A stretch of 50,671 nucleotides of DNA from a virus. Below, one piece after another: positions 3,933 through 46,958 of this stretch. The stretch lies in IMG/VR virus record IMGVR_UViG_3300003885_000005, positions 1 to 50,671 of that record; one strand, written 5' to 3'. The notes under the pieces were generated by a model. That model saw only the letters and a program-made list of their open reading frames with translations. It had not been told where the DNA came from and searched no databases. The translations under genes were made by a program, and so were the position numbers. Every line of letters starts with the position of its first letter. Position 1 is the first letter of the stretch.

Positions 3933-6308
3933 ATGAAGAAACTATTAATAGTTTTTCTATTCGTGTTCCTGTTTACTGGAATTGCGGAGGCCGCCAACCA
4001 AACAGAGTATTTTTATAAAGGTGCTGGTAGAAGGTCGATTTACTGGTCTGGAGAACAGGCACAGGAAGTTAACGGCGTTATCTATATGGTGTTTCAAGGG
4101 GCTGATGAAGACCCCTATGCTATTACCTATACGATAGCAACTGATACATATTCAGCAGCAGTCAAGGTAGGCACTAATCCATTGACTGATGATGCTCATG
4201 GCTCACCTACTATGTTGGTAGATTCCAGTGGGTTTATTCATGTGACTTTTGGTTCTCACGGGGGAGTGCAGAAGTATTCTAAATCTACAAACACATACGA
4301 TATATCTGCATGGACAGCTATGAGCGATATAACCGCTAATTCTACATACCCTTCATTGTTTGAAGATTCAACTGGCGATTTGTGGGTTGTGTATAGGGCA
4401 GGGACAGTAACTAATGATTGGGCTTTTAGGATTTCAACTAATGGCGGGACATCATGGGGTGCTGAATCATCATTCATAAATGGAGATGCAACCAATGGCT
4501 ATTACGGGACTACGGTTATGGATTCTAACGATGATTTACACCACGGCTTTATGTGGGTGGATATTGCTGGAGGCTCTACACGATACGATGTTTATTATAT
4601 GTGGTATGACTCGTCTGGTTCTAAGTGGTATAACGCCGCAGGAACGGAACTGACAGTACCACTTTCTAAAGCAGACGCAGACACTTATTGCAAAGTCCGT
4701 GATACTGGCTCAAATCAAGTAGGTGTATTACCCAAAGTTGGTTATGATGGTACAAACCCTTATGTATTATTTTCAGAAGGGCTTGGACAATCCTATACAT
4801 ATAAAATGGGTAAATATAGCGGTGGCTGGTCTATAAGCACTGTTGCGGCTACGGGCAATTCAAGAAGAGATAATTATATTTTAGATATTAAAAGCTCTAC
4901 TGACATAGATGCTTATGTGAATACCGGAGGTTTTACAAGCGGGGAAGTTGGACATTATGGTGACGGTGGTGGAGATATAACAATGTATAATTGGAATGGT
5001 TCGGCGTGGGGTGCCGGTTCTACTATCATGTCAAACGGTTCTTATATGGACAATCCTAAAATGGTAAAAAATTACACTACTTCGGGCAAGATGATTGTTA
5101 GTCAGTATCCTCCAAGTACATATTATAATGACCATGAACTCTATATGTGGGATGGCACAAAATTAATTACAAACGATACGTCGGACGGTACAAGTTGGCT
5201 AAGTGGATATGACAGCGCAAGCAAAGGCGCAAGACGTAAAATAATAATAAGAAACGAACAAGTTCCTGCTGATATATCTAATTATCCCGTCTATGTGAAG
5301 ATGCCACCTAATGATAATTTAGTAGCGAAAGCACAGGCAAGTGGCAATGACATAGCCTTTACAACATCAGACGGGACTACTCTGTTGGATTACGATAGAC
5401 GAAGCTATGATAGTTCGACAGGTGAACTCCATGCTTTTGTTGAAATGGATATTACTGCGGCTACCGACACAGTTTTTTATATGTATTATGGTAATCCAGA
5501 TGCTTCAGATCAACAGAATAAAGCAGGTGTGTGGGATTCAAATTATAAGTTGGTTCTGCATATGGATGAAACCACAGGTCAGCATATAGATTCTTCAGCT
5601 TCGGGTAACGACTCTACATCTATTAATGTAACAACTCAGGGTTCAGCTACTACGGTAGCGGTTGGAGCAGATAGGTTTGTAGTGGGGAGTTCTAACAAAG
5701 TTCAAATTGCAGACGATGCTACTCTTGACGCTACTGGTGATTTTACTTACGAGATATTATTTAAAATTGATAAGGTAACATCAAGCGCCACAGTACAAAA
5801 TCTACTCAATAAGAGGGATGCCGCTCTACCTTCCGTTGGAATAGTTATGTATTATCAGGGTTCGGTTACTAAGCTTGTTCATGGTGCGATAGACGTGGGG
5901 GCTGTATCCACAACATTAAGCTCTACGTCTACGGTAGATGATGATGGGTGGCATCATGTCGCATTTACAAGGTCTGGCACTACAACCGCTTTATATGTTG
6001 ATGGCGTATCGGAGGACACTGATACAACAGCTGGGAATGATGCTGATTTATCCAATGCTAATGATTTTAAAATAGGGGCTAATCGTAATGATGCTAATTT
6101 TTTAGATGGCGATGTAGCATCAGTTCGTATGTCTAATACTGTCAGAGACGCAGACTGGTTACTTACAACATCTAATAACTATTTAGACTTCATAGAATTT
6201 TACAATTTAAGTGGTGAGGAATATGTGCCCTCGACTGCTACGAAAAGCATGCAGATGTATTTCCCGTGTGCAAGGCCGTATCCGTGTAGAAAAGGTAATA
6301 GTAACTAA
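3933..6308 (+). CDS. Exported sialidase-like (BNR-4) / DUF2341 / LamG multidomain protein
   Basis: A 791-residue protein. Residues 1-20 are a Sec signal peptide ending 'AEA'. Residues ~25-430 resemble BNR-4 beta-propeller proteins ('GSPTMLVDSSGFIHVTFGSHG'). About 435-535 resembles DUF2341 ('RRKIIIRNEQVPADISNYPVYVKM'). About 540-770 is a LamG/concanavalin-like domain with the typical 'DGWHHVAFTRSGTTTALYVDG'. Such domain sets bind or cleave polysaccharides. Position among fibre genes suggests a receptor-binding or depolymerase role, yet the signal peptide means the protein would be exported. Catalytic residues cannot be assigned by eye. Ribosome site AGAGGAGAGCTAAC. Confidence 0.8.
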   Translation: MKKLLIVFLFVFLFTGIAEAANQTEYFYKGAGRRSIYWSGEQAQEVNGVIYMVFQGADEDPYAITYTIATDTYSAAVKVGTNPLTDDAHGSPTMLVDSSGFIHVTFGSHGGVQKYSKSTNTYDISAWTAMSDITANSTYPSLFEDSTGDLWVVYRAGTVTNDWAFRISTNGGTSWGAESSFINGDATNGYYGTTVMDSNDDLHHGFMWVDIAGGSTRYDVYYMWYDSSGSKWYNAAGTELTVPLSKADADTYCKVRDTGSNQVGVLPKVGYDGTNPYVLFSEGLGQSYTYKMGKYSGGWSISTVAATGNSRRDNYILDIKSSTDIDAYVNTGGFTSGEVGHYGDGGGDITMYNWNGSAWGAGSTIMSNGSYMDNPKMVKNYTTSGKMIVSQYPPSTYYNDHELYMWDGTKLITNDTSDGTSWLSGYDSASKGARRKIIIRNEQVPADISNYPVYVKMPPNDNLVAKAQASGNDIAFTTSDGTTLLDYDRRSYDSSTGELHAFVEMDITAATDTVFYMYYGNPDASDQQNKAGVWDSNYKLVLHMDETTGQHIDSSASGNDSTSINVTTQGSATTVAVGADRFVVGSSNKVQIADDATLDATGDFTYEILFKIDKVTSSATVQNLLNKRDAALPSVGIVMYYQGSVTKLVHGAIDVGAVSTTLSSTSTVDDDGWHHVAFTRSGTTTALYVDGVSEDTDTTAGNDADLSNANDFKIGANRNDANFLDGDVASVRMSNTVRDADWLLTTSNNYLDFIEFYNLSGEEYVPSTATKSMQMYFPCARPYPCRKGNSN

Positions 6309-9147: not shown

Positions 9148-10101
9148 ATGAATAAAATGGAAGTAGTAACATATAATAAGTTCTTAGGCGTCTACAGTAG
9201 TGGTGACTCTCAAGATATACCAAAGCCCGAAGGGGCTATAGCTCTTGTAACCGCTGATAATATGGATATTAATAAGTACTTTAAACTTAAATCTAGACCT
9301 GGTAGAACATTGAAGCTATCTGGAGATTATAAGAACCTTTGGTCCGACGGCTCAGTTATCTTTGCTACTATAGATAATGACTTATATAAGCTGGTTTTAA
9401 ACCAAGACTTGACTATGTCAGCAACTCTAATCCAACAGAATGTAGGTCCAGGAATAATGAACTATGCTAGCATAGGTGAGTTAGCTTATATGACTAATGA
9501 TACTAATATCTATGCCTACCAAGACAGCGCTATTAGAGCACTTAGAACCACAACCAATCAGTTCAGAAAAACTATGCCGCCGGGATACTTACTTGAATTA
9601 CACCGGAGTAGGATGTTTATAGCTAAGACCATCCAAACCTTTGATAGTGATTCTGCCTACAAACGTACCCAAGAAATCTTGATGCAGTCTGAAGCTGGTA
9701 ACTATGAGAGATATGATACTCGGGATGATAAATCCTGGCAGTCTTTTCCAACTAGACTAACCATGATAAAGTCAGTCGGAGACGGACTCTTTGTTTCAGC
9801 CGACAAGACGTATTTCTTAAAGGGGTCATTCTTAGGCCCGAATGGAATGACGCTGACTAAAGTTGATAATTCTTCAGCGATTTTTGGTACAGCTAAAAAA
9901 ATTCGTGGAGCTATGATAGCCGGCGAGTATTACGATAATGCAGTACTCTGGGAAACCGAACTTGGTATATGTGTAGGTGGTTCTGGTGGACGCTTTAAGT
10001 ATCTTACTGAAGGAAGGAAAGATAAATCCACTGCTAGCATTGGTGCTAGTTATATTAAACGTGGCGAAATAAATCAATATGTAGTTAATAAAAAAGGTTA
10101 A
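9148..10101 (+). CDS. Tail nozzle-like beta-propeller protein
   Basis: A 317-residue protein lying directly after the adaptor, as tail tubular B/nozzle genes do. 'NKFLGVYSSGDSQDIPKPEGAIALVTADNMDINKYFKLKSRPGRT' resembles the conserved opening of podovirus nozzle proteins, in which the protein first binds the adaptor and then folds into a beta-propeller. The following segments repeat strand patterns ending 'FISADKTYFLKG'-like. It is shorter than the large nozzles of T7-type phages. No ribosome site is visible before ATG 9148 or the in-frame ATG at 9157. The palindrome copy 1 abuts the start. Confidence 0.72.
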   Translation: MNKMEVVTYNKFLGVYSSGDSQDIPKPEGAIALVTADNMDINKYFKLKSRPGRTLKLSGDYKNLWSDGSVIFATIDNDLYKLVLNQDLTMSATLIQQNVGPGIMNYASIGELAYMTNDTNIYAYQDSAIRALRTTTNQFRKTMPPGYLLELHRSRMFIAKTIQTFDSDSAYKRTQEILMQSEAGNYERYDTRDDKSWQSFPTRLTMIKSVGDGLFVSADKTYFLKGSFLGPNGMTLTKVDNSSAIFGTAKKIRGAMIAGEYYDNAVLWETELGICVGGSGGRFKYLTEGRKDKSTASIGASYIKRGEINQYVVNKKG

Positions 10102-11640: not shown

Positions 11641-12462
11641 GTGGACACTTATTGGGGTTCTGGAGGTTGGTGTTATGGTGGCTGGGCTGGTGGGCCAGCT
11701 ATCAGTACCAATATATTTGCGGGTACAGCTAAGAAGGGAACACTTAGTCTCCGTAGTGGTAGTATACTTAATATAACAGCTAAGAAGGGTACATTCTCTC
11801 TAGTTGGAGTTGGTGGGGCTAACGTAAACGCTCTTGCTATGGTAGCTAAGGGAGGGACTCTGGTTGTATCAGGAATTAATGGTACAATTGGAGACTTTGT
11901 TCTAGCTGCTCAAAGAGGTACCTTAAATGTATTAGGATTTAGTTCTACATCTGGTACTTTAGCTATGGTAGCTAAGCATGGTGTATTATCTCTTAAACAG
12001 TTAGCTATACTTTGGGGTTGTACTGCTCTGTGTTTAGATAATGTAGCCAACTCGGACTATAATAATTTTGAGTTCGATTCTTTTGCTGTTAAAGATGGTT
12101 ACGTAATGGCCACTAATGCTAGTGGAGTCTATCTACTTACTGGTTCTGATGATGCTGGAACAAACATAGATGTTACTGTTGAGACAGTTCAGGATGATTT
12201 AGGAGCAGGTGAGTTAAAAACGGTTCCAGATGTTTATGTTACTTATAAAGGTGGTCCTGTAGTTGTTCAAGCTGTTAATCAAAGCAATGTTAGAACTGGT
12301 TATGAAGTTGAGGCTACTACTGAAATGAGGACTAAACGAGCACGAGTGGGACAAGGAGTTGAAAAGTTGTTATGGGGAATTAGGCTAACAAATCAAGATG
12401 GTGGTTCACTTGATGTGGATAGAATCGAGATGAGACCTTATAAAAGGAGTGGAAGAATTTAA
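11641..12462 (+). CDS. Virion protein with repeated 'AKKGTLSL' motifs
   Basis: A 273-residue protein starting at GTG 11641 behind AATAAGGAGATTAATTA. The N terminus is a Trp/Gly/Tyr-rich loop. Residues ~29-118 hold five copies of a short motif of the form [T/V/A]-A-[K/Q]-[K/G/R/H]-G-[T/V]-[L/F]-x-[L/V], 18-25 residues apart, which would build a repeating beta structure. The C-terminal half (about 120-273) is a globular beta domain. A tail-fibre or appendage role is inferred; enzymatic residues are not apparent. Confidence 0.7.
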   Translation: MDTYWGSGGWCYGGWAGGPAISTNIFAGTAKKGTLSLRSGSILNITAKKGTFSLVGVGGANVNALAMVAKGGTLVVSGINGTIGDFVLAAQRGTLNVLGFSSTSGTLAMVAKHGVLSLKQLAILWGCTALCLDNVANSDYNNFEFDSFAVKDGYVMATNASGVYLLTGSDDAGTNIDVTVETVQDDLGAGELKTVPDVYVTYKGGPVVVQAVNQSNVRTGYEVEATTEMRTKRARVGQGVEKLLWGIRLTNQDGGSLDVDRIEMRPYKRSGRI

Positions 12463-14183: not shown

Positions 14184-15305
14184 ATGGCTTACGTAACACA
14201 AGTAGTACCTAACAGACGCTCAGAGATAAAAGAGAATATAGTTACTCAAAAGTTCTCTGATATGACAGATCTTACAAATGATTTTTATACATTAGTAACA
14301 AGTTACGTTGCTGAGATTACTAACATTGTTGGGTCTATGCCAGATATAGATAATACAGTAGAGGAACCAGAAGTTGATCTAACCTCATTAGATACATCTA
14401 AACTTGAAGAACTGTTGAGGGACTTTCCAGTCAACCCATTAGAGAACGTGGTATGGCCAGATGTACCTAGTGACACTTTTAACTTCAATGAAGATGTTAA
14501 TTATAGTGATACATTGTTTGATAGCTTCGATACTAAACTACAAGAAGTTCTAGCCAACGCCACAACACTTCTCAGCGCATCTATTGAGAGTGATATCTTA
14601 GACCAAGAAGAAGAACGAGATGTATTAGTTAACCAAGATGCTAAAAGTGCTAAAGCCGCTGATTGGTCTGAGAGTGGATTTGAAACTCCTGGCAGTGGTC
14701 TCTTTACTACTCAAGGTCAGATTGATATAGATTATCAAAATAAAAAGCTAGACAAGTCCAGAGACATAAGAGTTGAGTCAAGGAAACTTGAGATAGATAA
14801 TATGAAACATGCTTTAGAACAGATAAATGGATTTGAGTCTATTAGAATGCAGTTCAAATCCGATTATTGGCAGAGAAAACTTGAGGCTACAAAAGCTTTA
14901 CTAGAGCGTGGCACTGCTATTTTTACAGCTCAGATAGAAATTATAAGGTCTCAAGCAGTTACATATCAGGCTATCTGCTCAGCATATTCAATGCATGCTT
15001 CAGCATTAGCTGAGTTTGCAAAAGCTAAATTCCAAGATATAAGAGCTCGAGTTGAATATGCAGCGGTGTTAGTAACTGCCAGGGTTGCAGAACTTAATTC
15101 AAAGATTAAAGAAGTTGAGACTAAGTATGGTATAGCTATGGATGGTGCTAAGACTCAAGGTGCTTTAGCTGCTCAAGTTATGGCTTCGGCCTTAGCTGCT
15201 GTATCAGCATCTGCTTCAATATCATCTACAGATAGTGCTAACGTAGCTTCAAGTATTTCAGCTTCAGAAGGTTGGACACATTATATGGATGAGTCACCGG
15301 AATAA
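14184..15305 (+). CDS. Internal virion/ejection protein, helical
   Basis: A 373-residue protein with GAAGGAGGCATAA before its ATG. Residues ~90-330 are a long alpha-helical, coiled-coil-rich stretch ('KLDKSRDIRVESRKLEIDNMKHALEQING'), and the C terminus is Ala/Ser-rich ('GALAAQVMASALAAVSASASISS'), typical of podovirus internal core proteins that are ejected with the DNA. It opens the three-gene internal-protein cluster. Confidence 0.7.
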   Translation: MAYVTQVVPNRRSEIKENIVTQKFSDMTDLTNDFYTLVTSYVAEITNIVGSMPDIDNTVEEPEVDLTSLDTSKLEELLRDFPVNPLENVVWPDVPSDTFNFNEDVNYSDTLFDSFDTKLQEVLANATTLLSASIESDILDQEEERDVLVNQDAKSAKAADWSESGFETPGSGLFTTQGQIDIDYQNKKLDKSRDIRVESRKLEIDNMKHALEQINGFESIRMQFKSDYWQRKLEATKALLERGTAIFTAQIEIIRSQAVTYQAICSAYSMHASALAEFAKAKFQDIRARVEYAAVLVTARVAELNSKIKEVETKYGIAMDGAKTQGALAAQVMASALAAVSASASISSTDSANVASSISASEGWTHYMDESPE

Positions 15306-15325: not shown

Positions 15326-16312
15326 ATGGCTACGTTGCAAGAGGAACTTAAAAGATTAAGAAAAGATAAAAAGTATAAAGGGCTATTCAAGAAAGGAGAT
15401 ATTACTGTTAGTGATCCTAATACTCCACCTCCAAGACCTGGACTTGCTATATCTGGTACGTCTGGTCACCGTAGACGTCCGGAGCAAATTGCGAGTTTGA
15501 AACGTAGAGAATTTAAACGTGGGATATCAGATGCTGGGGGTAAGAGATCTTACTTAGATCAGATAGCAGAGAAGTATCTTGGCGAAGATAGTAACCGAGG
15601 TATGTCTTGGCAAGAAAAAACCGGTATGCAGATTTATGATAGAGATAAACAAAGGAGATTTGATCTTAGGTCTGCTTTAAAAAAGGCTGATGAGTCTAAG
15701 TATGTTAAAGGTATCATGGCTCGTGTAACTCAAGCTGAGGCAATTGGTGGACAGATAACTGAAGAAAGAAAAGCCAAGCTTGGTTTAATGGGAGATATAA
15801 TAGGCGCTGAGGCAACTGGTGCAAGGACAGATGTTGCTGCGTCTAGTGATCTTGTTACACAGGAATATAGAAAAGCGCAGCTTGGAATAAGTTCAGCTGG
15901 TCAGAAGAGTCTAGAGCAATCTAGATTAGATACAGCTCAGTATCGTAAAGGAGTATTAGAACTTGGTGAGGCTACTAAGCCTAGTTCAGATGAGAACCAG
16001 TTAGCAACGTTAACAAGGCAAATGCAGAAGGACTTATCTGATGTTGCTCAGAGTGCTAAAGAGGCTCCAGCAGAGGAAACATATTGGGGCTTAGGTGGAC
16101 CAAATAAGGCTCAGGAACAAATTGATGCTATACGAAAATCCTATGCACCTGAGTTAAATAGAATCAAAGGTAATATGATCTTTAAAGACTTTAAGAAGAA
16201 TTTTGAGAAAAAGACTGGTAAGAAAATAACTAGGACACAATGGAACGCATATATAAAGACAGATAAAGGTAAGAAATATCTTAAAGAGCAAGGCTTGGAT
16301 ACAGGAGAATAA
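15326..16312 (+). CDS. Internal virion/ejection protein, charged helical
   Basis: A 328-residue, strongly basic and Gln/Lys-rich protein, mostly helical, preceded by AAGGAGGAATAGA. It has an apparently disordered N-terminal third ('PNTPPPRPG') and a C-terminal 'FKDFKKNFEKKTGKKITRTQWNAYIKTDKGKKYLKEQG' basic tail. It sits between the helical internal protein and the giant polyvalent protein, so an ejectosome component is likely. Confidence 0.65.
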   Translation: MATLQEELKRLRKDKKYKGLFKKGDITVSDPNTPPPRPGLAISGTSGHRRRPEQIASLKRREFKRGISDAGGKRSYLDQIAEKYLGEDSNRGMSWQEKTGMQIYDRDKQRRFDLRSALKKADESKYVKGIMARVTQAEAIGGQITEERKAKLGLMGDIIGAEATGARTDVAASSDLVTQEYRKAQLGISSAGQKSLEQSRLDTAQYRKGVLELGEATKPSSDENQLATLTRQMQKDLSDVAQSAKEAPAEETYWGLGGPNKAQEQIDAIRKSYAPELNRIKGNMIFKDFKKNFEKKTGKKITRTQWNAYIKTDKGKKYLKEQGLDTGE

Positions 16313-16315
16313 TCT

Positions 16316-19300
16316 ATGGCAAATGACAACTATGCTGATATAACGAACTTTATTGAATCTGAAACTAGCGTTCATGAAATGAACAAAAGTAATAAAGATA
16401 AGTTTAGTGATATAAATGAGTTTTTAGGAATAGAAGCTGAGCCAACGTCTACAGAGATTCTTATTGACCCAGAAAAGCGTGGTAAGAGTTATGGTGTATC
16501 TGGAGAGTGGGAAGATGAAAGTGGTGTACCACCAGAAATACTTACTGGTTTAAAAGGGGAGAACCGAAAAAAGAAAGCTAACTTATATAAACAGGCGACT
16601 CCTGAACAAAGAGCACTATATTTTCCGCAAACAGCTGCAACTGCTAGAGTTGTGGCTAAAGGAATTAATGCTAGACTATATGGAGCTCCTAAAGCTATTT
16701 TTGGTGATATACCTCCGTTTCAAGAATCAGAGAGCACTGCTGAATCTATAGGAACAGTTGGTGCAGAATTCTATGGTTTTTTAAAGGGCCCCTTTGCGCT
16801 AGCCAAAAGCTTATTAGGAAAAACTTGGGCTGCTAGAGAGGGTAGTATTGCAGCTAATTATGCTAGAATGATTGGAAGAGGTGGTCTTGAGCTTGGAACT
16901 GCCGGTGGAATAAGTGAAGTAATTCCCGCAGTTAGTGAAGAAGGATTAACAAGAGAAGCAGGTACTAGAGTTAATGATGCATTTAAACAAAGTGCACTAT
17001 TTGGTATGATATTTCCTGCTGCCGGAGTTATACCAACTAAACCTTTAAGAGTAGTTATTGGTGCTGGCTTGACTGATTTAGTTAGAGGTAGAGGTGAGTT
17101 TACATATGATGATACTATTAGAGGTTTACAGGATGGTACCATTGACCAACAGGAATTAGTTGATAGAGGCTTTGGGTATCTTATGGATGTATATTTTTTA
17201 ACTAGAACTCCTTCAGTAAAGAAACAAATAGAATCTCTTATACCATTTAAAAGAGTAGACAAGTTGGCATCTATGATAGCTAATGATAAGATGCAACAGG
17301 GTAAATACCAAGAAGCTGTTGATATAGTTAATGAGAGGTTTGAAAAGATTAAGAATGATCCAGAAATAAAAGAGAAGATGTCTGAGTTAGTTGGTAAAGA
17401 GTTAGAGGAGATACAGAAACAACTTAAAACTGATAAAGGAAGACAGGCTATTATAGATAAAAAGATGCCTAAAGATTTAGGTGATACACTTAAACTAAAT
17501 GCTCAAGCTAGACAAGCTGAGATAGATAGAATATCAGCCGTTGCTACAATACCAATAGAAGAAGCTCCAAAGATAGCTAAAGCAATAAAGCCACCTGAAA
17601 CAACTATGCAGAAGATTGATAAAATGATAGATGAGATAAAAACATTAGGAGAAGATATTGGTTACAAGCCAGTCCTTAAACGTGATAAATTACAAATACC
17701 AGTAGGTGAAAAGAAACCAGCTGATACTAAATTAATTGAACAGGATAAAAGAGTTCAAGAAGTTTTATCTGAAATAGAAAAGCTCGAAGGTTTAAGAACC
17801 ACAGCCGAGAAAGCTACTGGTATGAACCTCAAGTCTATATATGATAAAGCAATAAATGAAGCTATAGATACTTTACCTGAAGGTGAGAAGATCGAACTAC
17901 AATCAGCTATAAGTAACTTTAGAAAGAAAGTATATGTTACAGGTATTGAGAAGTATTATGCTGAGAAAGCAGCCGAGAAGAAAGCTACAGAGGTTGAGGT
18001 AAAGGAAAAACAAACGGCAAAGGAAACGACCCCTGTAAAGGGAAAAGAAAGCCCGGCGCCAGCCAAGCGTACGATGGAAGAGTCCGTCGCTGCTGGGGAA
18101 ATTCCGGCGCCCGAATACAAAGGCAAAGAACGGAGAGAAGTACCAGAAGCTAGACAGACAGTTATAGATGGATATGTAAGAAAGGAGCTTGGGGTTAAAG
18201 GTCTTGGTGGAAAAAAGTTAGCGCCGCTGACCAAATCTGAAAAAGAAGTTCTGGCGTTATATGAAGCTAAGCATCCTGATTATGTTAAAAAGGTTAGAGA
18301 AGATATAAAGGGGCGTGAAGAACCATCTAAAAAGGCTGCTGAGGTTGATAAGAAAAAAGAGATTGATCGGGTTGCTAAAGAGCATGATGTTAAGTATGAG
18401 GGAATACAGGAAGGTGCTGAGGGTGAAAAGTTCTATACCTTTACAGATAAAGAGACGGGTTCTACTTTTATGGTAAGTAATTTATCTAAGGTTGAGCGTA
18501 GTGTAACTGATATGAGGAAGAAGTTTAAAGAAGCAGAGAAGGAACCTAAAGAAGAAGTCAAAGTGGAACCTGATGCTGAGCTCTCTAAGACAGAAGTCAG
18601 TATAAAAGAACTTGGTGAGCTTACTCCTACGCAACTGGTTGAGAGAGCTAAGAAGGTGGGGCTCGAGCAAACGGTATGGAGTAAAGCTCTTTCAAATCGT
18701 GAGTATGTAGAGAGGCAGATAGTGGGGAAGGAAGGGAAGCCGTTTGAGGAAATGGTGAAGGAACCAGAGATTAAAATTGAGCCTGAGATTAAACCTGGTT
18801 TAAGAACTAAGTTCCAAAAGATCCTTGCCCAAGATAAGCTAACCCAAGAAGATATTAAGTGGCTTAAAGAAAACAAGGAAGCTCTGGATTTAACTCCAGA
18901 GGAAACCCAAGCCATTAAAATGCGTATGGCTGGTAAGCTTGTTAAAAGAATTATATCAGAGGAGAAGTTTCAAAAGAACTCAGAGTCTATTAAAAAGTAT
19001 CTTAAAGGTTTGAAGGTATTTACTGGGGTTCCAGACCCAAAGATTATAAAGGCTATGTCTGAAAATGCTATTTATCATATTGAAAGAAAAGCTACAAGCT
19101 TTTATCAATGGTCTCAAAAGATGATTAAAGAGTTTGGCAATAAAATTAGACCTATTCTACACCAAGCTTGGACTAATGCCCAGAACCATATTAATAGTGC
19201 TCGGGGGTATGAAGCTTATAAAGGGCGTATAGTTGCCGGAGATAAATTTAGTAAGGTTTATATAGCAGATAGTGTAACTGAATCTCTTCAAAATGAATCT

Positions 19301-21976
19301 AAGATACTTAATAGTTATGTCTCTAAAGGATACATATCAGATAAACAACTTGATGTTGATTTAACTTATAGCACTGGTAAGATGTATGAGAGAGCTGGGT
19401 TTGAAAAACCAAAGCGTAGGTTTGACATTAAGCCAAGGTCAGTTGATGTAGAAAAAGCAAGCGTAGTAGATAGTGTTCCCATAGAAAACATGTCTGTGGG
19501 CTCGATAATGTTTGACCCTCCGTTCTTAGTTGGTAAACAGTTTGCAGAGATAGCTAAAACATATGATAAAAGTAAATCAAGTAATATATTTGGGGACAGA
19601 TTTGGTTCATTTAAGGACTTAAATGAAGCTGTAAATATGTGGGGAAGTGGGATAGCTGAAGCAAGTAGAATATTGAAACTGGATGGGAAGTTGTTTGTTA
19701 AGATACAGGATACTGTTTCTTTTGGTGGAGATCCAAGGCTCGAACCGTCATTAGAAACAGGGGTTACAAAAACTAAAAGTGGGGCAACTAGAGGAAAGAT
19801 TCCTGCGACGCAGTACTTAATAGATGTAGCAAGTATATATAAACTTAATTTAATTGAGGGCGTGTCTAAAGTATCATCTATGACTTCTCATCCAGAACTG
19901 AAGACTATTGTTAACTATATGGTGTTTGAAAAAGTAAAAGCTCCTGTTGTTAGTCCTGAAATTAGTGTATCAGCTGAGCGCTACCAAAAGTCTTTTGATA
20001 TCATCAAGAAATATTTCAAAGGCGAGAAGCCTTATGGTGAAAAACTCCATGCTGGTATTGGATTAGACCCCCAATTGGTCAAAGACATATCTCGTGTGAT
20101 GAGGTACCATATTGAGAAGGGCACTAAAGACTTCTATCGTGTTAGTCAAGAGCTAATCAAAGAGTTTGGTGAGAAAGTCCGGCCGTATCTCAAACCCGCT
20201 TTTGATCAAGCTCGGGATAAAATAAGACTTACATCTATGACCAGAAAGGATATCAAGTATGCCAATGACGCTCTTGTAAAGATGGGCCTCAAGACATTAT
20301 CTGAGGCAGAGGCTGAGAATATAAGCCCTGAAACCGTGAATGAGCCTGGCTTAATCAAACGTTTTATGAGTACTCTTGAATCTACCGATCAAACTTTGGA
20401 AGCTTACAAGGGCGGCGCTCAAGAACATATTAACGCTGTGCCAAAGATAATGGTTGAAGAGACTTTTATACCTAAGCAGCAGTGGATAGTGGAGAAGTTT
20501 AAACAACTAGATGGAGCTATGAAGGGAGTACGAAGATCTGTTAAAGCTGATGAGCTTAGTCGAGTAGGTAAAGAAGCCAATAAGCTTGGGCGAGAAGTGT
20601 CTGAGGTTCTTGAACTTAAAGATATAGCAGACGCTAAATATAAATACTCCTCAAAGTCTATTGAGATAGCCAAAGATGTTCGTAAGATACTTGATGATAT
20701 CTTGGTTGAACTACAAGACGCTAACGTGTTGGATAAGAAGGGTAAGCTTATCAAGAGGCTTGAAGGCTACTTCCCACACATAAAGAAAGAGTTCAGCATG
20801 TCTGAGGATCTTCAACGCTACATGAATGATGCCCTTGAAGGACGCCACGATGATATTATAGGTGCGGCCAGCGGCGGTGTTGATCTGTATGGAACTGCAA
20901 AGCCTGTACCAAAGTTTGGTCATGCTGAGAAGAGGGCTAAAGGTGAGTATGGGCTACAAGATATAGAAACAAATCCGTTGAGGGTGCTTAGACGCTATGT
21001 CTTGGCAGCTTCAAGAATCCTTTATGATAAGCCTGGTATAGAGAAAGCTCGGGTTGAGATAGATATGATACCTAAGGGGCCTATGAAAGATCTAAGTGTG
21101 AAGTATATTCAGAACTATATGAGAGTATCAGACTCTATATCGGGTACTCTAAGGCTCGTTGATGCTAAGTTGGCTAGAATGGGTGCGAGGTCAGTTTTAG
21201 CCTTTAGTACTGGCTTGCAAACTCTCCATCTTGGTCGTGTTGCTACACAGATATGGCCAGAGCTTGGAACTAGATATTCTCTATCAGGATTAAACCAGTT
21301 ACTTATGAGCCCAGCAAAAGCTTGGGCAGAAACCAGAGACGCGGGACTTTTACCTCAAGCATCTATACCAACTAGATTTAAGTTTCGTGGTGAAGTCTTT
21401 GACAACATTAGTAACTATGGTGACTTTGGTAACTCAGTAGCTAAGATAATAGCCTATCAAGGATTTTTAAGGAAGGTAGCCAACCAACATCCAGAATGGA
21501 CTTTTAAGCAGGTACAAACAGAGGCTATCAAGCAGACTATTAGAGCTGAAGGAGTTATCAATCAAGCGACTAAGTCTATAGCATTAGAGAAGATACCTAA
21601 GTTCTTCTTACAGTTCAAGTATTGGTTCCAAAAGTATGGTGAGAATACATCCAGAGCAATAGCATATGCAGCCAAAGACCCAAGCATGGACAACATGACG
21701 AGGGTTGGAAGGTACCTAACCGCTGCGGCTATAACTGAAGAGATAACTAGACAACTTGGCTTGAAGATATTCCATATCACTCCATATGTGATACAACTAT
21801 CAGCAACCGGCGCTGGGTATTTAAAAGACATTGCCTTCATATTGGCTAATGATAAAGACTCTATAGAGACAAGACTTGAGAAAGCCTTTAAACGTACAGC
21901 ACAGTATGGAATACCTGGTGGAGTCTCGGTACCAAGAGAAATCACACAAGGTCCAACTGCTATAAAGAAACATTAA
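16316..21976 (+). CDS. Giant polyvalent ejection protein with internal methyltransferase-like domain
   Basis: An 1,886-residue protein, the largest gene of the window. Residues ~1-600 are mixed and charged. About 560-830 is Lys/Glu/Pro-rich linker. About 890-960 and 1219-1304 are two copies of one helical module sharing 'kYfKG...GxdP', 'YHIE', 'FYxxSQxxIKEFGxKiRPxL'. Between them, ~965-1215, is a methyltransferase-like domain with motif I 'DLTYSTGKMY' (~1013) and motif IV F-D-P-P-F at 1066-1070. The last ~250 residues are hydrophobic/amphipathic and may insert in membranes. By analogy with phage polyvalent proteins and P1 DarB-type virion methylases, it may enter the host with the DNA and protect it from restriction. 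Confidence 0.8.
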   Translation: MANDNYADITNFIESETSVHEMNKSNKDKFSDINEFLGIEAEPTSTEILIDPEKRGKSYGVSGEWEDESGVPPEILTGLKGENRKKKANLYKQATPEQRALYFPQTAATARVVAKGINARLYGAPKAIFGDIPPFQESESTAESIGTVGAEFYGFLKGPFALAKSLLGKTWAAREGSIAANYARMIGRGGLELGTAGGISEVIPAVSEEGLTREAGTRVNDAFKQSALFGMIFPAAGVIPTKPLRVVIGAGLTDLVRGRGEFTYDDTIRGLQDGTIDQQELVDRGFGYLMDVYFLTRTPSVKKQIESLIPFKRVDKLASMIANDKMQQGKYQEAVDIVNERFEKIKNDPEIKEKMSELVGKELEEIQKQLKTDKGRQAIIDKKMPKDLGDTLKLNAQARQAEIDRISAVATIPIEEAPKIAKAIKPPETTMQKIDKMIDEIKTLGEDIGYKPVLKRDKLQIPVGEKKPADTKLIEQDKRVQEVLSEIEKLEGLRTTAEKATGMNLKSIYDKAINEAIDTLPEGEKIELQSAISNFRKKVYVTGIEKYYAEKAAEKKATEVEVKEKQTAKETTPVKGKESPAPAKRTMEESVAAGEIPAPEYKGKERREVPEARQTVIDGYVRKELGVKGLGGKKLAPLTKSEKEVLALYEAKHPDYVKKVREDIKGREEPSKKAAEVDKKKEIDRVAKEHDVKYEGIQEGAEGEKFYTFTDKETGSTFMVSNLSKVERSVTDMRKKFKEAEKEPKEEVKVEPDAELSKTEVSIKELGELTPTQLVERAKKVGLEQTVWSKALSNREYVERQIVGKEGKPFEEMVKEPEIKIEPEIKPGLRTKFQKILAQDKLTQEDIKWLKENKEALDLTPEETQAIKMRMAGKLVKRIISEEKFQKNSESIKKYLKGLKVFTGVPDPKIIKAMSENAIYHIERKATSFYQWSQKMIKEFGNKIRPILHQAWTNAQNHINSARGYEAYKGRIVAGDKFSKVYIADSVTESLQNESKILNSYVSKGYISDKQLDVDLTYSTGKMYERAGFEKPKRRFDIKPRSVDVEKASVVDSVPIENMSVGSIMFDPPFLVGKQFAEIAKTYDKSKSSNIFGDRFGSFKDLNEAVNMWGSGIAEASRILKLDGKLFVKIQDTVSFGGDPRLEPSLETGVTKTKSGATRGKIPATQYLIDVASIYKLNLIEGVSKVSSMTSHPELKTIVNYMVFEKVKAPVVSPEISVSAERYQKSFDIIKKYFKGEKPYGEKLHAGIGLDPQLVKDISRVMRYHIEKGTKDFYRVSQELIKEFGEKVRPYLKPAFDQARDKIRLTSMTRKDIKYANDALVKMGLKTLSEAEAENISPETVNEPGLIKRFMSTLESTDQTLEAYKGGAQEHINAVPKIMVEETFIPKQQWIVEKFKQLDGAMKGVRRSVKADELSRVGKEANKLGREVSEVLELKDIADAKYKYSSKSIEIAKDVRKILDDILVELQDANVLDKKGKLIKRLEGYFPHIKKEFSMSEDLQRYMNDALEGRHDDIIGAASGGVDLYGTAKPVPKFGHAEKRAKGEYGLQDIETNPLRVLRRYVLAASRILYDKPGIEKARVEIDMIPKGPMKDLSVKYIQNYMRVSDSISGTLRLVDAKLARMGARSVLAFSTGLQTLHLGRVATQIWPELGTRYSLSGLNQLLMSPAKAWAETRDAGLLPQASIPTRFKFRGEVFDNISNYGDFGNSVAKIIAYQGFLRKVANQHPEWTFKQVQTEAIKQTIRAEGVINQATKSIALEKIPKFFLQFKYWFQKYGENTSRAIAYAAKDPSMDNMTRVGRYLTAAAITEEITRQLGLKIFHITPYVIQLSATGAGYLKDIAFILANDKDSIETRLEKAFKRTAQYGIPGGVSVPREITQGPTAIKKH

Positions 21977-28119: not shown

Positions 28120-30432
28120 TTACTCCAGATCCCTCCAGTTCTTACCACTTTTAGTATCACTAGGAATATAAAAAGTTCTTCCATGATACGTCAACTCATA
28201 CTTAAAAAGCTCATGTACCTTATCCACCACAAACTTCCTCATGCTTATTGGGTGTTGTATAAGCAATGAATCATGCACTTGCAACTTAACACTAATATCT
28301 TTATGTTTCTTACAAACTTCATTATAGAACCTAATAATGCCTTTATTAATAACAGTTCCAACAACCTCTTGCGGCTCGTAAGCAACACACTCTTTAACTA
28401 AATCCGGACCCAGACGGCCAAAGAAAATCCTCTTTCGGCCAGTAGCGGTTGTGTGTGTTTTGGTACGTTTTAGCTCATCATCTAATGTCTTGAATAACCT
28501 CTCCAGGTTTGGGTTCAAGTCATAGAACTTCCTCTGTAGTTGCTTAGCCTCGGCGGCTGGTATTCTAAGTTGCTTTTGTATCCCTATGAAAGAGCCACGT
28601 TTCTCAAGTGTGTGTCGGAGCTTCTTAGCTCTAAAATATTTAGACAGGGTATCTTTACCCTCTGCCTCACGTTTGAGTTTATCTTCTTTAACCTCATCTG
28701 GATTCATATTAAACACAAGACAGGCTGTATAAGTATGTATGTTTTTATCCATCTCAAATATTTTAATAGAAGCTTCATCACCAGACCAATACGCAACTAT
28801 CATAGACTCAGCGCCTTTAAGATCAGCCTCGGTGAACTCCATACCCTCATCTGGAACAAGTATATCTCTAATCTTTTTAGGTATATTTTGAGCGTTTGTT
28901 CCAAAACCAAATGTACTTGTAGATGAACTTAAGCGATAAGTCTCAGCGCCGGTAGGATTAATATTGAACATAAATCTGCCATTAATAGGATCAGTTAAGT
29001 CAACAAGCCAAGTTGATATAAGCTTTCTTTCGCTCCTTATATTAATAACCTCAGCAATCTCTGGTGATTGTATGCTGAGTTTCTCAAGAGCGTCGGCATT
29101 AGAAGTAGGTTTGCCTCCTTTCATTATAGGTTTTAACTTAAGTGTCCCATAAGCTAACTTCATCATCTGTTGTGGGGAGTGAGGGTTTACTCCATTGAAG
29201 GTCTTAGCAAACTTTTCTTCTCTTTGTTTAAGTGACTTTTTATAGTATTCAATGTGCTCATTAAGTCTCTTAACATCTACTCTTATTCCACTCATTTGCA
29301 TAAATAGAAGTGGTTCAAGCAACTCCATCATATAATCATAAGTGTGCCGAACACCAAGCTCATTTATTTCTTTTTCAAGTTCTTCATACACCTCATATGT
29401 TACAGCTGAGTCACGAGCAGAGTAGGTCCAGTTCTGCTCATCAGTTGAGGTGCCGGCTAACCATGTTTTTAGATCGTCTTTATAATAAGGCTCATTAGTA
29501 TATATCGAAGCAAGAAAATCTAAACCCTTTGGAAGCTCTGAATAACATGAGTGCTGTGCAATCATAGTATCATACCACGGCTTCTTAACAAGTACACCCC
29601 AGTTACGCATTATCCACTTAATATCGTGACTTATATTTTGACCTATCTTTAAGTCATCTCTGTTAAAGACTTTTTCCATTGCCTTCCAAATTATTCTTAA
29701 GTTTCCCCATGAACCCCAATACGATTTAGTTGTTGGTATGCTTATAGACTCATCTTTAGAAAATGCAAATGATATGCAGTGTATCCAATTTGGTTTATTC
29801 TCAATATCATAAGCGAAGTTGCCTCTGTTATCACCAAGAAAGTGCAAGACGTCATCCATGGTGGGTTCAATAATCAAGTTCCGTTTAGGCAGAATAACTT
29901 CTGGAAATTCACTTTCTTTAAGTATCTTCTTTAAATCAAATCTTTGAACGGGATTAAGCTTCCAACTATTATTTATAGCAGCTGGGTGATAGGTGCCTAT
30001 AACTTTAACTACATGACCATTGGGTAGAGTGGTTGATAAAATACTTCCACGCCATTTACCTATTTGTGTCTTACCGGTGAGAGCCCATAAGGGATTCGCA
30101 CCTAATGGAACAATTATATTAGTATCTAATTCATCGAGCTCTTTTAGTAGCTCATCTTTGAGTTTAAGAAGCTGTGCTGTTGGTTGTTTACCTTTCCAGA
30201 ACATTTTATTAAACATTTTAGGTGGAACAGCGAGCTTAGATATGTTGGTAAGATAACATTGCTGACGTGAGATGCCAGTCATATGCAGGTTGCTATTAAG
30301 GATTCGGCCAGAAGTCCCAACAAATGGTTGGAGGTTGGCTACTTCTTCGACCCAAGGAGCCTCACCAATGAAGGCTATCTTACACTTTTTGGGTCCTACA
30401 GGTGGAACGTAGATGGTGCCGAGGGCCATCAT
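28120..30432 (-). CDS. Uracil-DNA-glycosylase / family A DNA polymerase fusion
   Basis: A 770-residue replicative polymerase. Residues ~15-185 are a UDG family 4/5-like domain: 'GEAPWVEE...PFVG' at 23-39, 'TNISKLAVPP' at 62-71 and H149-P-A-A, but without the cysteines of iron-sulphur UDGs. A 3'-5' exonuclease follows with Exo I 'DIE', Exo II 'NISHD' and Exo III 'YSARD'. The polymerase has motif A 'ADLKGAES' (~532), motif B with conserved Lys/Arg near 'KRGSFIGIQ', and motif C 'VHDSLL' (~718). It starts in a TGATG overlap with the methyltransferase gene. The glycosylase part may edit uracil or act as a clamp-like accessory domain; its activity cannot be judged from sequence. Confidence 0.88.
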   Translation of the reverse strand: MMALGTIYVPPVGPKKCKIAFIGEAPWVEEVANLQPFVGTSGRILNSNLHMTGISRQQCYLTNISKLAVPPKMFNKMFWKGKQPTAQLLKLKDELLKELDELDTNIIVPLGANPLWALTGKTQIGKWRGSILSTTLPNGHVVKVIGTYHPAAINNSWKLNPVQRFDLKKILKESEFPEVILPKRNLIIEPTMDDVLHFLGDNRGNFAYDIENKPNWIHCISFAFSKDESISIPTTKSYWGSWGNLRIIWKAMEKVFNRDDLKIGQNISHDIKWIMRNWGVLVKKPWYDTMIAQHSCYSELPKGLDFLASIYTNEPYYKDDLKTWLAGTSTDEQNWTYSARDSAVTYEVYEELEKEINELGVRHTYDYMMELLEPLLFMQMSGIRVDVKRLNEHIEYYKKSLKQREEKFAKTFNGVNPHSPQQMMKLAYGTLKLKPIMKGGKPTSNADALEKLSIQSPEIAEVINIRSERKLISTWLVDLTDPINGRFMFNINPTGAETYRLSSSTSTFGFGTNAQNIPKKIRDILVPDEGMEFTEADLKGAESMIVAYWSGDEASIKIFEMDKNIHTYTACLVFNMNPDEVKEDKLKREAEGKDTLSKYFRAKKLRHTLEKRGSFIGIQKQLRIPAAEAKQLQRKFYDLNPNLERLFKTLDDELKRTKTHTTATGRKRIFFGRLGPDLVKECVAYEPQEVVGTVINKGIIRFYNEVCKKHKDISVKLQVHDSLLIQHPISMRKFVVDKVHELFKYELTYHGRTFYIPSDTKSGKNWRDLE

Positions 30433-31769
30433 CCATCTCCTATCTTATCCAAGAGCCCTGCATCCTTAGCACTCAGAAAGTCCGCAATCCTAAGCAACGC
30501 TCTGTCATAGTTAACTTGGTCAAGTTCAAATCCAAGTGCCTTGCATCCACTCTTGATACCAGCAATAATCGTGGTAGCACTCCCAGCAAATGGATCTAAG
30601 ATAGTCTGACCTGGTAAGCAGAACCGACTAACTAGCTCTTCCATAAGTGGGAGCGGCTTCTCCACCACATGAACTTTCTCCGAGATCGAGACCCCAGGGA
30701 AAGGTAGTATGTTACTTTGACCTCTTTTAACCAGTGAGTAGTCACCTCTTGTGCCATAGAGGAAGGCTTCATAAGATCGAGCCATGTTCTTGGACGGTAC
30801 ACTAGTTTGGCCCGGGCCGCCTGTACGATGCCAAATACCAGGGATGGGGTCAACGGAGAAACCTATCTGAGTAAACCTGTCAGCCAACCAACCAAAGTTG
30901 CTTAAGCTGTTTGGCTTATGTTTGTGGTCACAGAAGAAAACAAAACAGGCATCCTTTGCCATAACCCGATCAAGTTTATTAATCAACGTATCTATCATTG
31001 TAAAGTACTCTGCCTCATCATCATCATAAGTACTATTATCTTGAGCGGCTTGAGAGTCAGATGAAACCTTCTTAATTTTCTTTAGGTCTATACCATAAGG
31101 TGGGTCGGTTATCAAGGCACTGATGGAGCCAGCGGGTAGGCTATCTATTAGCTCCAAACACGAGCCATTGAAGAGGTAATTCTGTGCTTTGGAACCATAA
31201 TTAGTCTTCTTCTTCCTAATCGCTAGCTCAGCATGAGTTTCATCCAACTTGTACTTCTGTAAGACTTTCAAAGCCGACTCTCGAGTCTTACACCTAACAA
31301 ACATTTCAGGATCAACCTTAAGGGCCTCAGCCAAACCCAAATCAGTGCTAATAGCCCCAGTAGACAGGCCAGTTTTCTTTGCAGCCATACGTAGGGGCAT
31401 TTTCTTATACTTAGCCTTTAACATATCCATCAAGTCGGTAGTAGCTGACACTTTCTCACGCCAGTCGAAGTCTTTGCGCTCGAGGTTCTCAGTTATCTCC
31501 CATATGCGGTGGTCTACTTCATCCAGAGTCGTGATGATGGCCCGAACGTGTACTTCTGCTTTCTTACAGGCGGCCGTTCGCCTCTCTCCGGCAACCAACG
31601 TATATCTACCGGGTACGTCGGCTGGAATTACGATTATAGGGATTATGTTTTTTCCTAATGTTTTGATACTTTCTGATAATGACTCTATATCACCAAGGTC
31701 TTTTCGGTATCGGTCAGAGTCTATTATAATATCGTCTGGGTTGAGTAGAGCAATGTTGTCAGTGGTCAT
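30429..31769 (-). CDS. ParB-like domain / DNA methyltransferase fusion
   Basis: A 446-residue protein. Residues ~10-100 form a ParB/Srx domain with G-E-R-R-T-A-A at 61-67 and 'ENLERKDF'. About 110-190 is a helix-turn-helix region ('RMAAKKTGLSTGAISTDLGLAEAL'). The C-terminal half is an N4/N6-type DNA methyltransferase: 'DPPYG' at ~221 and, after a recognition region, 'DPFAGSATT' at ~390, giving the motif IV-then-I order of class beta enzymes. It probably methylates phage DNA against restriction or for regulation; the ParB part would give sequence-specific binding. Coupled to the polymerase gene. Confidence 0.87.
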   Translation of the reverse strand: MTTDNIALLNPDDIIIDSDRYRKDLGDIESLSESIKTLGKNIIPIIVIPADVPGRYTLVAGERRTAACKKAEVHVRAIITTLDEVDHRIWEITENLERKDFDWREKVSATTDLMDMLKAKYKKMPLRMAAKKTGLSTGAISTDLGLAEALKVDPEMFVRCKTRESALKVLQKYKLDETHAELAIRKKKTNYGSKAQNYLFNGSCLELIDSLPAGSISALITDPPYGIDLKKIKKVSSDSQAAQDNSTYDDDEAEYFTMIDTLINKLDRVMAKDACFVFFCDHKHKPNSLSNFGWLADRFTQIGFSVDPIPGIWHRTGGPGQTSVPSKNMARSYEAFLYGTRGDYSLVKRGQSNILPFPGVSISEKVHVVEKPLPLMEELVSRFCLPGQTILDPFAGSATTIIAGIKSGCKALGFELDQVNYDRALLRIADFLSAKDAGLLDKIGDG

Positions 31770-43045: not shown

Positions 43046-43136
43046 ATACTCAGAAACTAGTTATCACTGTATATATTGTATGAAGTCGAAGTTAGAAATA
43101 ATTGATAAGGGTTTAAGGTGCACTAAGGATGATTGA
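43035..43136 (+). CDS. 33-residue zinc-knuckle micro-protein
   Basis: ATG 43035 overlaps the gene before it by 11 bases, and its stop lies inside the large terminase start region (8-base overlap). It contains CIYC and one later Cys. Overlaps at both ends support expression, but the function is unknown. Confidence 0.55.
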   Translation: MEHKYSETSYHCIYCMKSKLEIIDKGLRCTKDD

Positions 43137-44718
43137 ATTTACTCCCAACCCACTATGCACCTATAAATACCGTTACGATAAGATCTTCAAAGATATGGCA
43201 GAGGAGAAGATCGACCCCATCGCAACATATAGGCAGCTTATATTAGATGATTTGTTTTTTGTATTGTTCTTTATAGTTCATCCATTTAATCCTAAGTGTG
43301 AGTACACCGTGAATCATCCTTTCATAGTTAATGCTTGTAAAGAGGTTGAGAATGGCCCAGCGGACTTTACTATGGATGTATGGGCAAGATTCCATTACAA
43401 GAGCTCAATTATTACTATAGCCGAAACTATCCAGTACATTGCTAAGAATCCAGAATATACCACAGGGATTTTTTGTTATGCTAACAAGCCAGCTAAGAAA
43501 TTTCTGTTCTCTATTCGAGAAGTTTGTGAGAATGAGAAGTTACTTCATACATGCTTTCCGGATATTTTCTGGGAGAACCCAAAGAAAGAATCTCCAATGT
43601 GGAGTATAGATGATGGTATTATCTTGAAGCGTGACAGTAATCGCGGCGAACCAACTGTCTCCGCACATGGGCTCACAGAAGGTATGCCGACTGGTGCTCA
43701 CTATGAGCGGCGCATCTATGATGATATAATCACGGAGGATATTGCTAACTCAGTGGATGTGATGGAGAAAGTTAAGGAGAAATTTGATTCATCGCAGAAT
43801 CTTATGACTGATGGTGGTACACATAGGGTGGTTGGAACATTCTACCATCATGCTGACCCGCTTAATTATGTTAAAGAGAAGAAAGATGTATATGATCAGG
43901 AGAAGCCAGCTTATCTATTAAGGCTTAAGCCCGCTACAGCTGATGGGACTATTAGTGGTGACCCGGTGCTGTTAAGTCAGAGAACCTTTGATAGTCTTAA
44001 GTTAACATCTACATTTTCATGTCAGCAGTTACTGGACCCAACACCAGTTGGCATTAGGCGCCTGGATTCGACTTTGTTCCAAGACATAGAGCCTGAGTTT
44101 ATTCCCGCCGGGCTTTACAAGTTTCTTATTGTTGACCCAGCGGGTGATGATACTGGTCAGGCACGACGTGATAATTGGGCAATAGGTGTTTTAGGTGTTG
44201 AACCTAAAGCTGACGATATGGGCATGTCGAGGGTGTTCTTGCTAGATGCTTTGATCGAGCCACTTAGAGAAGACGAGGCGCCGGACGAAATAGTTCAAAT
44301 GTACCTTAACAACGGACGTATATGGCAAACAGGTATTGAGAAAGTTGCCCTGTCCACCACTGAGCTACATGTAGCCGCTGCACTTATGAAAAAGGGTATA
44401 TATGTCTCAGTTAAGAATAGAAACCTGGTTATATTGAGGCCTTCTGGAAGAAAGAAAACAAAGAGAATCGAGAGAGGTCTAGCAGCCCCATTATACCATA
44501 GTAAGTTGTTTATGTCTAAAGCTGTTCCACAAAAATATAGAGATAAAATTAGAATAGAAGCTGATACATTCCCTTATGGTATTAAAGATGATGGCTTAGA
44601 TATGTGGAGTTACTTATATGACATGATTCTAGATTTTAGGTTTGTCTTGATGGATGAAGAAGACGAGCAGATACCTGTCACGAGGGAGGTAGGCCGAAAT
44701 GCCACAACCAGGTACTAA
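43129..44718 (+). CDS. terL: Large terminase subunit
   Basis: A 529-residue protein. The ATPase part has an altered Walker A (F-H-Y-K-S-S at 88-93, with 'IITIAETI'), 'CYANKPAKKFL' after it and a Walker B-like 'RRIYDDIITEDI'. The C-terminal RNase H-fold nuclease begins with 'FLIVDPAGDDTG' at ~330 and includes further acidic residues near 'DDGLDMWSYLYD'. It pumps and cuts DNA at the portal. The gene overlaps the portal gene by 20 bases, and GGGAGGTAGGCC near its end is the portal's ribosome site. Confidence 0.9.
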   Translation: MIEFTPNPLCTYKYRYDKIFKDMAEEKIDPIATYRQLILDDLFFVLFFIVHPFNPKCEYTVNHPFIVNACKEVENGPADFTMDVWARFHYKSSIITIAETIQYIAKNPEYTTGIFCYANKPAKKFLFSIREVCENEKLLHTCFPDIFWENPKKESPMWSIDDGIILKRDSNRGEPTVSAHGLTEGMPTGAHYERRIYDDIITEDIANSVDVMEKVKEKFDSSQNLMTDGGTHRVVGTFYHHADPLNYVKEKKDVYDQEKPAYLLRLKPATADGTISGDPVLLSQRTFDSLKLTSTFSCQQLLDPTPVGIRRLDSTLFQDIEPEFIPAGLYKFLIVDPAGDDTGQARRDNWAIGVLGVEPKADDMGMSRVFLLDALIEPLREDEAPDEIVQMYLNNGRIWQTGIEKVALSTTELHVAAALMKKGIYVSVKNRNLVILRPSGRKKTKRIERGLAAPLYHSKLFMSKAVPQKYRDKIRIEADTFPYGIKDDGLDMWSYLYDMILDFRFVLMDEEDEQIPVTREVGRNATTRY

Positions 44719-46753: not shown

Positions 46754-46958
46754 AGAATTTACTATTGATGGAGAGATGGTTACAGAATGGCTTGACTTTG
46801 CAACAACAAAAGCTTTTATAGCTAAATTAGACCAGATAGAAATTGAAAAGCTTAAATCTATCGTAGTTAATGATAATAAAGAAGAAGCTTGCGGTATCGT
46901 CAAGGGTATTATCCTTGTTAAATCACTTATAGAGAGTGCGAAGGAGGAAGGTTTATGA
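46746..46958 (+). CDS. Small helical protein before the co-chaperonin
   Basis: A 70-residue helical protein overlapping the portal gene by 8 bases and the co-chaperonin gene by 4 bases (ATGA). 'IEKLKSIVVNDNKEEACGIVKGIILVKSLIESAKEEG' is typical of small phage head-region proteins. Function unknown. Confidence 0.65.
   Translation: MPKEFTIDGEMVTEWLDFATTKAFIAKLDQIEIEKLKSIVVNDNKEEACGIVKGIILVKSLIESAKEEGL

What the first reader, a model, noticed from the sequence alone, without database searches (positions are those of the whole stretch)
16316..21976. Giant ejection-type protein with a methyltransferase between two copies of one helical module
The module 'YHIE...FYxxSQxxIKEFGxKiRPxL' occurs at ~890-960 and ~1219-1304, and a domain with motif I 'DLTYSTGKMY' and motif IV F-D-P-P-F sits between them. 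This looks like an insertion into a duplicated module. If packaged and ejected with DNA it could be a delivered anti-restriction enzyme, similar in idea to P1 DarB. The embedding between duplicates appears unusual.
Basis: partly seen in the sequence, partly recalled or inferred. Interest (0 to 1): 0.8.

Follow-up and report, generated by a model that had tools for sequence, protein, structure and literature searches.

The report
Methyltransferase inside a phage virion-type protein
A phage gene sitting where related phages encode a giant protein carried inside the virus particle contains a DNA-methylating enzyme domain wedged between two copies of one helical building block, an arrangement seen nowhere else in the relatives sampled and probably a variation on the known trick of injecting anti-restriction enzymes together with the viral DNA.

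Summary
ORF 16316-21976 (1886 aa) carries two copies of an ~85-aa helical module (aa 880-960 and 1218-1307; 42% identity over 86 aa, score 167 against 31 +/- 5.5 for shuffles). Between them lies a class I methyltransferase (MTase) domain (aa 985-1208) with its catalytic core intact. The module is not orphan: it occurs once in each of 89 other sampled ORFs, nearly all giant DarB-like phage proteins, usually 200-930 aa before their NPP[Y/F] MTase. Only this protein has two copies. The MTase belongs with a family (phrog_24333) that is stand-alone (178-340 aa frames) in all 35 related viral loci found; here it is fused. It is divergent and has lost the family's C-terminal QxHARKxHSYF signature. 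The gene ends the late operon, collinear with Pseudomonas phage H66, whose equivalent gene (gp60, NPPF methyltransferase) is annotated as found in virions by mass spectrometry. So a virion-borne, DNA-methylating ejection protein is the best reading, but virion location, activity and anti-restriction function are inferred, not shown. It is not a DarB orthologue: no helicase, no NPP[Y/F] MTase, and P1 DarB lacks the module. Verdict: a new architectural variant of a known kind (phage polyvalent/ejection proteins).

The parts
16316..21976 (+). 1886-aa virion/ejection-type multidomain protein, last gene of the late operon
   Evidence: single open frame; position collinear with H66 gp60; no relative outside aa ~816-1350 found in phages
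18953..19195 (+). helical module copy 1 (aa 880-960)
   Evidence: profile match to module of DarB-like giants; 42% identical to copy 2
19268..19939 (+). class I DNA-methyltransferase-type domain (aa 985-1208); motif I region D1015-Y1024, catalytic DPPF 1067-1070
   Evidence: phrog_24333 E 5e-21; profile match and conserved residues; AF2 plus Foldseek
19718..19801 (+). about 28-aa insertion (aa ~1135-1162) after motif KxQD, absent from stand-alone relatives
   Evidence: alignment reading, register approximate; low pLDDT here
19967..20236 (+). helical module copy 2 (aa 1218-1307)
   Evidence: AF2 model of four to five helices, mean pLDDT 80
14184..15305 (+). homologue of H66 gp58, two genes upstream; synteny anchor
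   Evidence: phmmer E 2.7e-22; tblastn
15326..16312 (+). gene between the gp58 homologue and the giant, at the position of H66 gp59; no recognisable relative
11641..12462 (+). virion structural protein, H66 gp57 homologue
   Evidence: phrog_26502; phmmer E 2.4e-5
9148..10101 (+). head closure protein Hc3, H66 gp54 homologue
   Evidence: phrog_8040 E 9e-19; phmmer E 5e-5

Best explanation
The gene encodes a virion-carried, ejection-type multidomain protein of a short-tailed-type phage. A DNA-methyltransferase domain related to a stand-alone phage MTase family has become fused between two copies of an ~85-aa helical module; in other phages that module occurs once, upstream of the MTase of DarB-like giants. 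Most likely mechanism: the protein is packaged in the head, enters the cell with the DNA, and its MTase methylates the incoming genome to reduce restriction, the flanking helical modules holding the enzyme within the larger ejected chain. Shown by computation: the duplication, its shared ancestry with the DarB-like module, the MTase fold and intact core motifs, the fusion, and the synteny. Inferred: packaging (about 0.75), catalysis (about 0.65), DNA rather than another substrate (about 0.7), protection of incoming DNA (about 0.45).
For: Duplicated module far above chance. The module is conserved in DarB-like giants: PBC5, Atu_ph08, BcepIL02, Skulduggery, Mwe-JY07, Y7, POI1126, Bacteroides phages and 80 IMG/VR loci. 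It lies upstream of their NPP[Y/F] MTase, median 477 aa, in 78 of 89. MTase: phrog_24333 E 5e-21. Family-invariant core residues kept: D1015, T1017, Y1018, G1021, Y1024, P1032, D1037, D1067-P-P-F, R1118, G1124, K1129, Q1131. Class I MTase fold. Stand-alone in all 35 other viral loci and in the three best Bacteroidota hits. Virion context: Hc3, gp57-like and gp58-like genes in H66 order, with the giant at the position of gp60, annotated as virion-verified by mass spectrometry. JC1 gp69, a DarB-like giant with the module (H31), has 51 unique peptides in purified virions (PMC9144972). [quoted passage not shown]
Against: The domain has lost the family C-terminal signature QxHARKxHSYF, carries a 28-aa insertion and sits on a very long branch (3.74), so specificity or activity may have changed. 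No close relative of the whole protein exists in the collections searched, so selection on the active site could not be tested. The SWI2/SNF2 ATPase that nearly always accompanies the DarB-type MTase (Iyer et al. 2017, PMC5512222) was not found. Even for P1 DarB the anti-restriction mechanism is undefined (PMC11109961). The same genome carries a second ParB-MTase (30429-31769) that could protect its DNA without this protein.
Confidence: 0.45

Rival explanations
1. The MTase domain acts in the producing cell rather than after ejection: tethered to a virion protein, it methylates the genome at or before packaging so that particles already carry protected DNA.
For: The gene lies in the late operon next to virion genes. 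Stand-alone relatives are ordinary cell-acting enzymes, for example H103 gp51 beside terminase and replication genes.
Against: A free MTase, such as this phage's own ParB-MTase, would do the same without fusion. Virion giants with MTases in related phages are thought to be injected (PMC5512222).
Confidence: 0.2
2. The domain is catalytically altered or inactive and serves as a structural, SAM-binding or DNA-binding element within the ejection protein.
For: Lost HARxxHSYF signature, long insertion, very long branch.
Against: All core SAM-binding and catalytic residues that are invariant in the family are retained after great divergence, which suggests selection for catalysis.
Confidence: 0.2
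3. The module acts mainly as a packaging or ejection signal or docking element. Its duplication brackets cargo, and the MTase could have been any cargo.
For: The module occurs in giants with different cargo, such as InPase, transglycosylase, hydrolase and LPD domains, and is near-invariant in single copy.
Against: It usually sits before an MTase, suggesting a functional link to methylation; no structural relative gives a function; H66 gp60, a virion protein, lacks it.
Confidence: 0.12
4. Assembly chimera or chance similarity.
For: Single metagenomic virus record with no close relative.
Against: One uninterrupted frame through all junctions, sister modules in the same gene (98/95), similar composition across the segments, coherent synteny.
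Confidence: 0.03

Closest known systems
DarB-like giant proteins of podoviruses (Burkholderia phages BcepIL02 gp70 and JC1 gp69, Agrobacterium phage Atu_ph08 gp21; phrog_10089, phrog_938)
   Same: Share the ~85-aa helical module N-terminal to an MTase; last big late gene after virion genes; JC1 gp69 detected in virions (PMC9144972).
   Different: They have one module, an Eco57I/NPP[Y/F]-type MTase and SWI2/SNF2 helicase motifs, and are mostly 3500-5200 aa; the window protein has two modules, a DPPF MTase of another family, no recognisable helicase, and 1886 aa.
phrog_24333 stand-alone phage DNA methyltransferases (e.g. Pseudoalteromonas phage H103 gp51)
   Same: Same core motifs D-x-T-Y-S/G-x-G-x-F/M-Y, FDIxP, FDPPF, RF, GxxxFKxQD.
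   Different: Stand-alone ~200-290 aa proteins; window copy is fused, has an insertion and lacks the QxHARKxHSYF C-terminus.
Pseudomonas phage H66 gp60 (Hollowayvirus, F116-like)
   Same: Collinear position after gp54, gp57 and gp58 homologues; MTase domain inside a large protein annotated as virion-verified by mass spectrometry.
   Different: NPPF MTase, DarB-like C-terminus, no helical module, 3787 aa.
P1 DarB
   Same: Large phage protein with an MTase domain; packaged and co-ejected in P1 (PMC12810830).
   Different: No module, different MTase, helicase present in DarB (PMC11109961).
Polyvalent proteins (Iyer et al. 2017)
   Same: Phage-encoded large multidomain protein with an effector domain in a portal/terminase phage; repeated independent incorporation of DNA methylases is described (PMC5512222).
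   Different: Module duplication around a non-DarB MTase is not mentioned in the passages searched; the module has no Pfam model.

Membership tests
DarB (MTase plus SWI2/SNF2 dyad) | EcoKI/TaqI-like adenine MTase with NPP(Y/F) | tested here: not met
   only [DNS]PP[YFW] in the protein is DPPF at 1067; best family phrog_24333
DarB (MTase plus SWI2/SNF2 dyad) | C-terminal SWI2/SNF2 helicase | tested here: not met
   no Pfam hit; no Walker A or DExH-type motif
DarB (MTase plus SWI2/SNF2 dyad) | LPD36 domain (GXGU motif) N-terminal to the MTase | tested here: inconclusive
   no LPD36 model was available to me; the module consensus shows no clear GXGU and in the giants it lies further upstream
DarB-like podovirus giants | conserved ~85-aa helical module | tested here: met
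   two copies, E 5e-19 and 7e-21
DarB-like podovirus giants | LPD38-type C-terminal region (one subgroup) | tested here: not met
   profile of 22 members gives no hit
phrog_24333 DNA methyltransferases | SAM and catalytic core motifs including DPPF | tested here: met
phrog_24333 DNA methyltransferases | C-terminal QxHARKxHSYF signature | tested here: not met
   therefore called a divergent relative, not a typical member
phrog_24333 DNA methyltransferases | DNA methylation activity | not testable with these tools
   needs biochemistry
Phage polyvalent proteins | large multidomain protein in a phage with a portal/terminase packaging system | tested here: met
   terminase and portal in the window; late-operon position
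Phage polyvalent proteins | two or more domains of disparate activity | tested here: inconclusive
   one enzymatic domain recognised; N- and C-terminal regions unassigned
Phage polyvalent proteins | packaged and transferred with DNA | not testable with these tools
   inferred from synteny with H66 gp60 only

The most novel reading that the evidence does not exclude
The helical module is an interchangeable cargo socket in phage ejection proteins: a unit into or beside which stand-alone enzymes are plugged by recombination, its duplication being the footprint of such a cargo capture. The window phage then shows a non-DarB methyltransferase newly recruited for delivery with the genome without the usual SWI2/SNF2 translocase.
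Probability: 0.15. Interest if true: 0.7.

Novelty: new variant of a known kind. Interest (0 to 1): 0.45.

Why it matters
If the protein is packaged and active, it would be a delivered DNA methylase of a different family from DarB, acting without the SWI2/SNF2 partner. That would make it a much smaller system in which to ask whether ejected methylases protect incoming DNA by methylating it, a question still open for P1 DarB (mechanism 'not defined', PMC11109961). It also points to an unnamed module, absent from Pfam and present in at least about 90 phage ORFs, as a recurrent neighbour of virion-borne methylases.

Tried and rejected
Exact-peptide searches of IMG/VR with the whole protein, the MTase region and module copy 2 gave no relative. 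DNA-pattern scans for window-like modules: the first viral and the genome-contig scan used a pattern with one N too many (it did not match the window), so they are uninformative; the corrected viral scan gave only chance matches. The module was absent from the 33 records holding the stand-alone MTase, so the two parts do not co-occur as separate genes in this sample. A phage sharing TerL (45% identity, L128) shares nothing else. Module in 297 Bacteroidota genomes: none, without a positive control. LPD38 at the C-terminus: rejected. Zincin-type HExxH protease motif: absent. DarB orthology: rejected. Structural relatives of the module in the PDB: none significant. The MTase tree cannot give the direction of fusion because the window branch is too long. 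Folding the whole module-MTase-module stretch was given up because MAFFT misplaced rows; module 1 plus MTase, and module 2, were folded separately.

Full report
OBSERVATION. The ORF at 16316-21976 (+) encodes 1886 aa. Two copies of a helical module lie at aa 880-960 and 1218-1307, with 42% identity over 86 aa; the local score of 167 compares with 30.7 +/- 5.5 (maximum 65) in 2000 shuffles, and the boundaries come from a profile built on both. The DNA of the copies is almost unalignable, so the duplication is old. DLTYSTGKMY begins at 1015 and FDPPF at 1066.

THE MODULE IS A KNOWN PHAGE PART WITHOUT A NAME. tblastn with copy 2 finds giant DarB-like phage proteins. Iterated profiles align both copies with single modules in PBC5, Atu_ph08, BcepIL02, Skulduggery, Mwe-JY07, Y7, POI1126 and BS-TP4. 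The consensus is N-x-IFTEDAAEKARxxLRxKL...NSGIDPE...GITLAGYHIEKGARTFAAYAKAM..DLGD.VRPYLKSWYMGVK. Scanning IMG/VR gave 238 relatives, of which the best 80 loci were kept. Of 90 module-bearing ORFs, only the window's has two copies. With all filters off, the best second hit elsewhere has E = 1.3, against 3e-21 for the window. A few loci are the same phage in two collections, so the 89 are not fully independent, and the sample is weighted towards the classic consensus. In 78 of the 89 an NPP[Y/F] motif follows the module, median 477 aa downstream. In BcepIL02 and Atu_ph08 the module precedes an Eco57I-type MTase and helicase motifs. AlphaFold2 predicts four to five helices (pLDDT 80) with no significant PDB relative. 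Pfam has no model for it.

THE METHYLTRANSFERASE. aa 983-1135 match phrog_24333, 'DNA methyltransferase', E 5e-21. Relatives were found in 35 IMG/VR loci, and in every one the domain fills a stand-alone open frame of 178-340 aa. Strong matches in Bacteroidota genomes are also stand-alone (228-296 aa). The residues that are invariant or nearly so in the family core are kept: D1015, T1017, Y1018, G1021, Y1024, P1032, D1037, P1040, D1067, P1069, F1070, R1095, F1096, E1115, R1118, G1124, K1129, Q1131. The C-terminal K.R...Q.HAR..HSYF signature is lost, and about 28 residues are inserted near 1135-1162. The AF2 model of module 1 plus MTase (mean pLDDT 70.7, MTase core above 90) matches class I SAM methyltransferases (Foldseek E to 1e-6, probability 1.0) and viral DNA methylases. 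The TM-scores are moderate, up to about 0.6 by target length. The motif order (I before IV) differs from beta-class enzymes such as CcrM, which the profile touches only weakly. The domain sits on a very long branch, so the tree does not prove descent from within the stand-alone set.

CONTEXT. The window is a 50.7-kb virus record with terminase, SU10-type portal, a major head protein match and head closure Hc3. Three genes upstream of the giant match Pseudomonas phage H66 gp54, gp57 and gp58 in the same order (E 5e-5, 2e-5 and 3e-22). After gp58 both phages have one gene and then the large one. H66 gp60 is annotated as similar to SAM methyltransferases and verified in the virion by mass spectrometry. 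It carries an NPPF MTase and a DarB-like C-terminus, but neither the module nor the window's MTase. A DarB-like giant with the module, JC1 gp69, was found in purified virions with 51 unique peptides (PMC9144972). The late-operon position and these two cases make virion location likely but do not show it.

ORIGIN. The two copies are sisters (98/95) apart from all other modules, although both branches are long. This favours duplication within this gene lineage over capture of a second module from elsewhere. Whether the MTase was inserted into an existing tandem pair, or came first with duplication following, cannot be decided without homologues, and none were found.

MECHANISM. Best supported: a packaged, ejected protein whose embedded MTase modifies the incoming genome. 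Shown: architecture, fold, intact core, synteny. Inferred: packaging, activity, DNA substrate, anti-restriction. P1 DarB is the functional model (head protein, co-ejected; PMC12810830), but its mechanism is 'not defined' (PMC11109961). The usual DarB partner, a SWI2/SNF2 ATPase (PMC5512222), was not found here. P1 DarB itself lacks the module and this MTase, so the window protein works, at most, like DarB and is not a DarB.

NOVELTY. Iyer et al. (2017) described polyvalent proteins and the repeated accretion of DNA methylases into them (PMC5512222). New here are the use of another MTase family in such a position, its apparent independence of the helicase, and the duplicated module on either side. 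This is a new variant of a known kind. Interest is moderate because function rests on inference and the architecture is a single case.

Noticed in passing
28120-30432 (-): Uracil-DNA glycosylase superfamily domain fused N-terminally to a family A DNA polymerase with 3'-5' exonuclease.
   Followed up: no
30429-31769 (-): ParB N-terminal domain fused to an N6/N4 DNA methylase: a second, early-region methyltransferase in the same phage.
   Followed up: partly
46955-47266 (+): GroES-like co-chaperonin gene in the head-gene cluster.
   Followed up: no
3933-6308 (+): Tail-type protein with BNR, DUF2341 and laminin-G domains, matching an alpha-L-rhamnosidase model below its cut-off: possible receptor-binding or glycan-cleaving protein.
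   Followed up: no
43129-44718 (+) and L128: Terminase large subunit is 45% identical to that of IMG/VR contig 3300037424_000408, but nothing else is shared: terminase exchange between unrelated phages.
   Followed up: partly
L006 (Sinorhizobium phage PBC5) 4040-19788: The DarB-like giant is annotated as two adjacent genes (gp22, gp21); the module lies near the end of gp22, the only split case noticed.
   Followed up: no
L008-L012, L048-L127: The ~85-aa module (consensus NSGIDPE...YHIEKGARTFAAYAKAM..DLG..VRPYLKSWY) is near-universal in this type of DarB-like giant yet has no Pfam model.
   Followed up: yes
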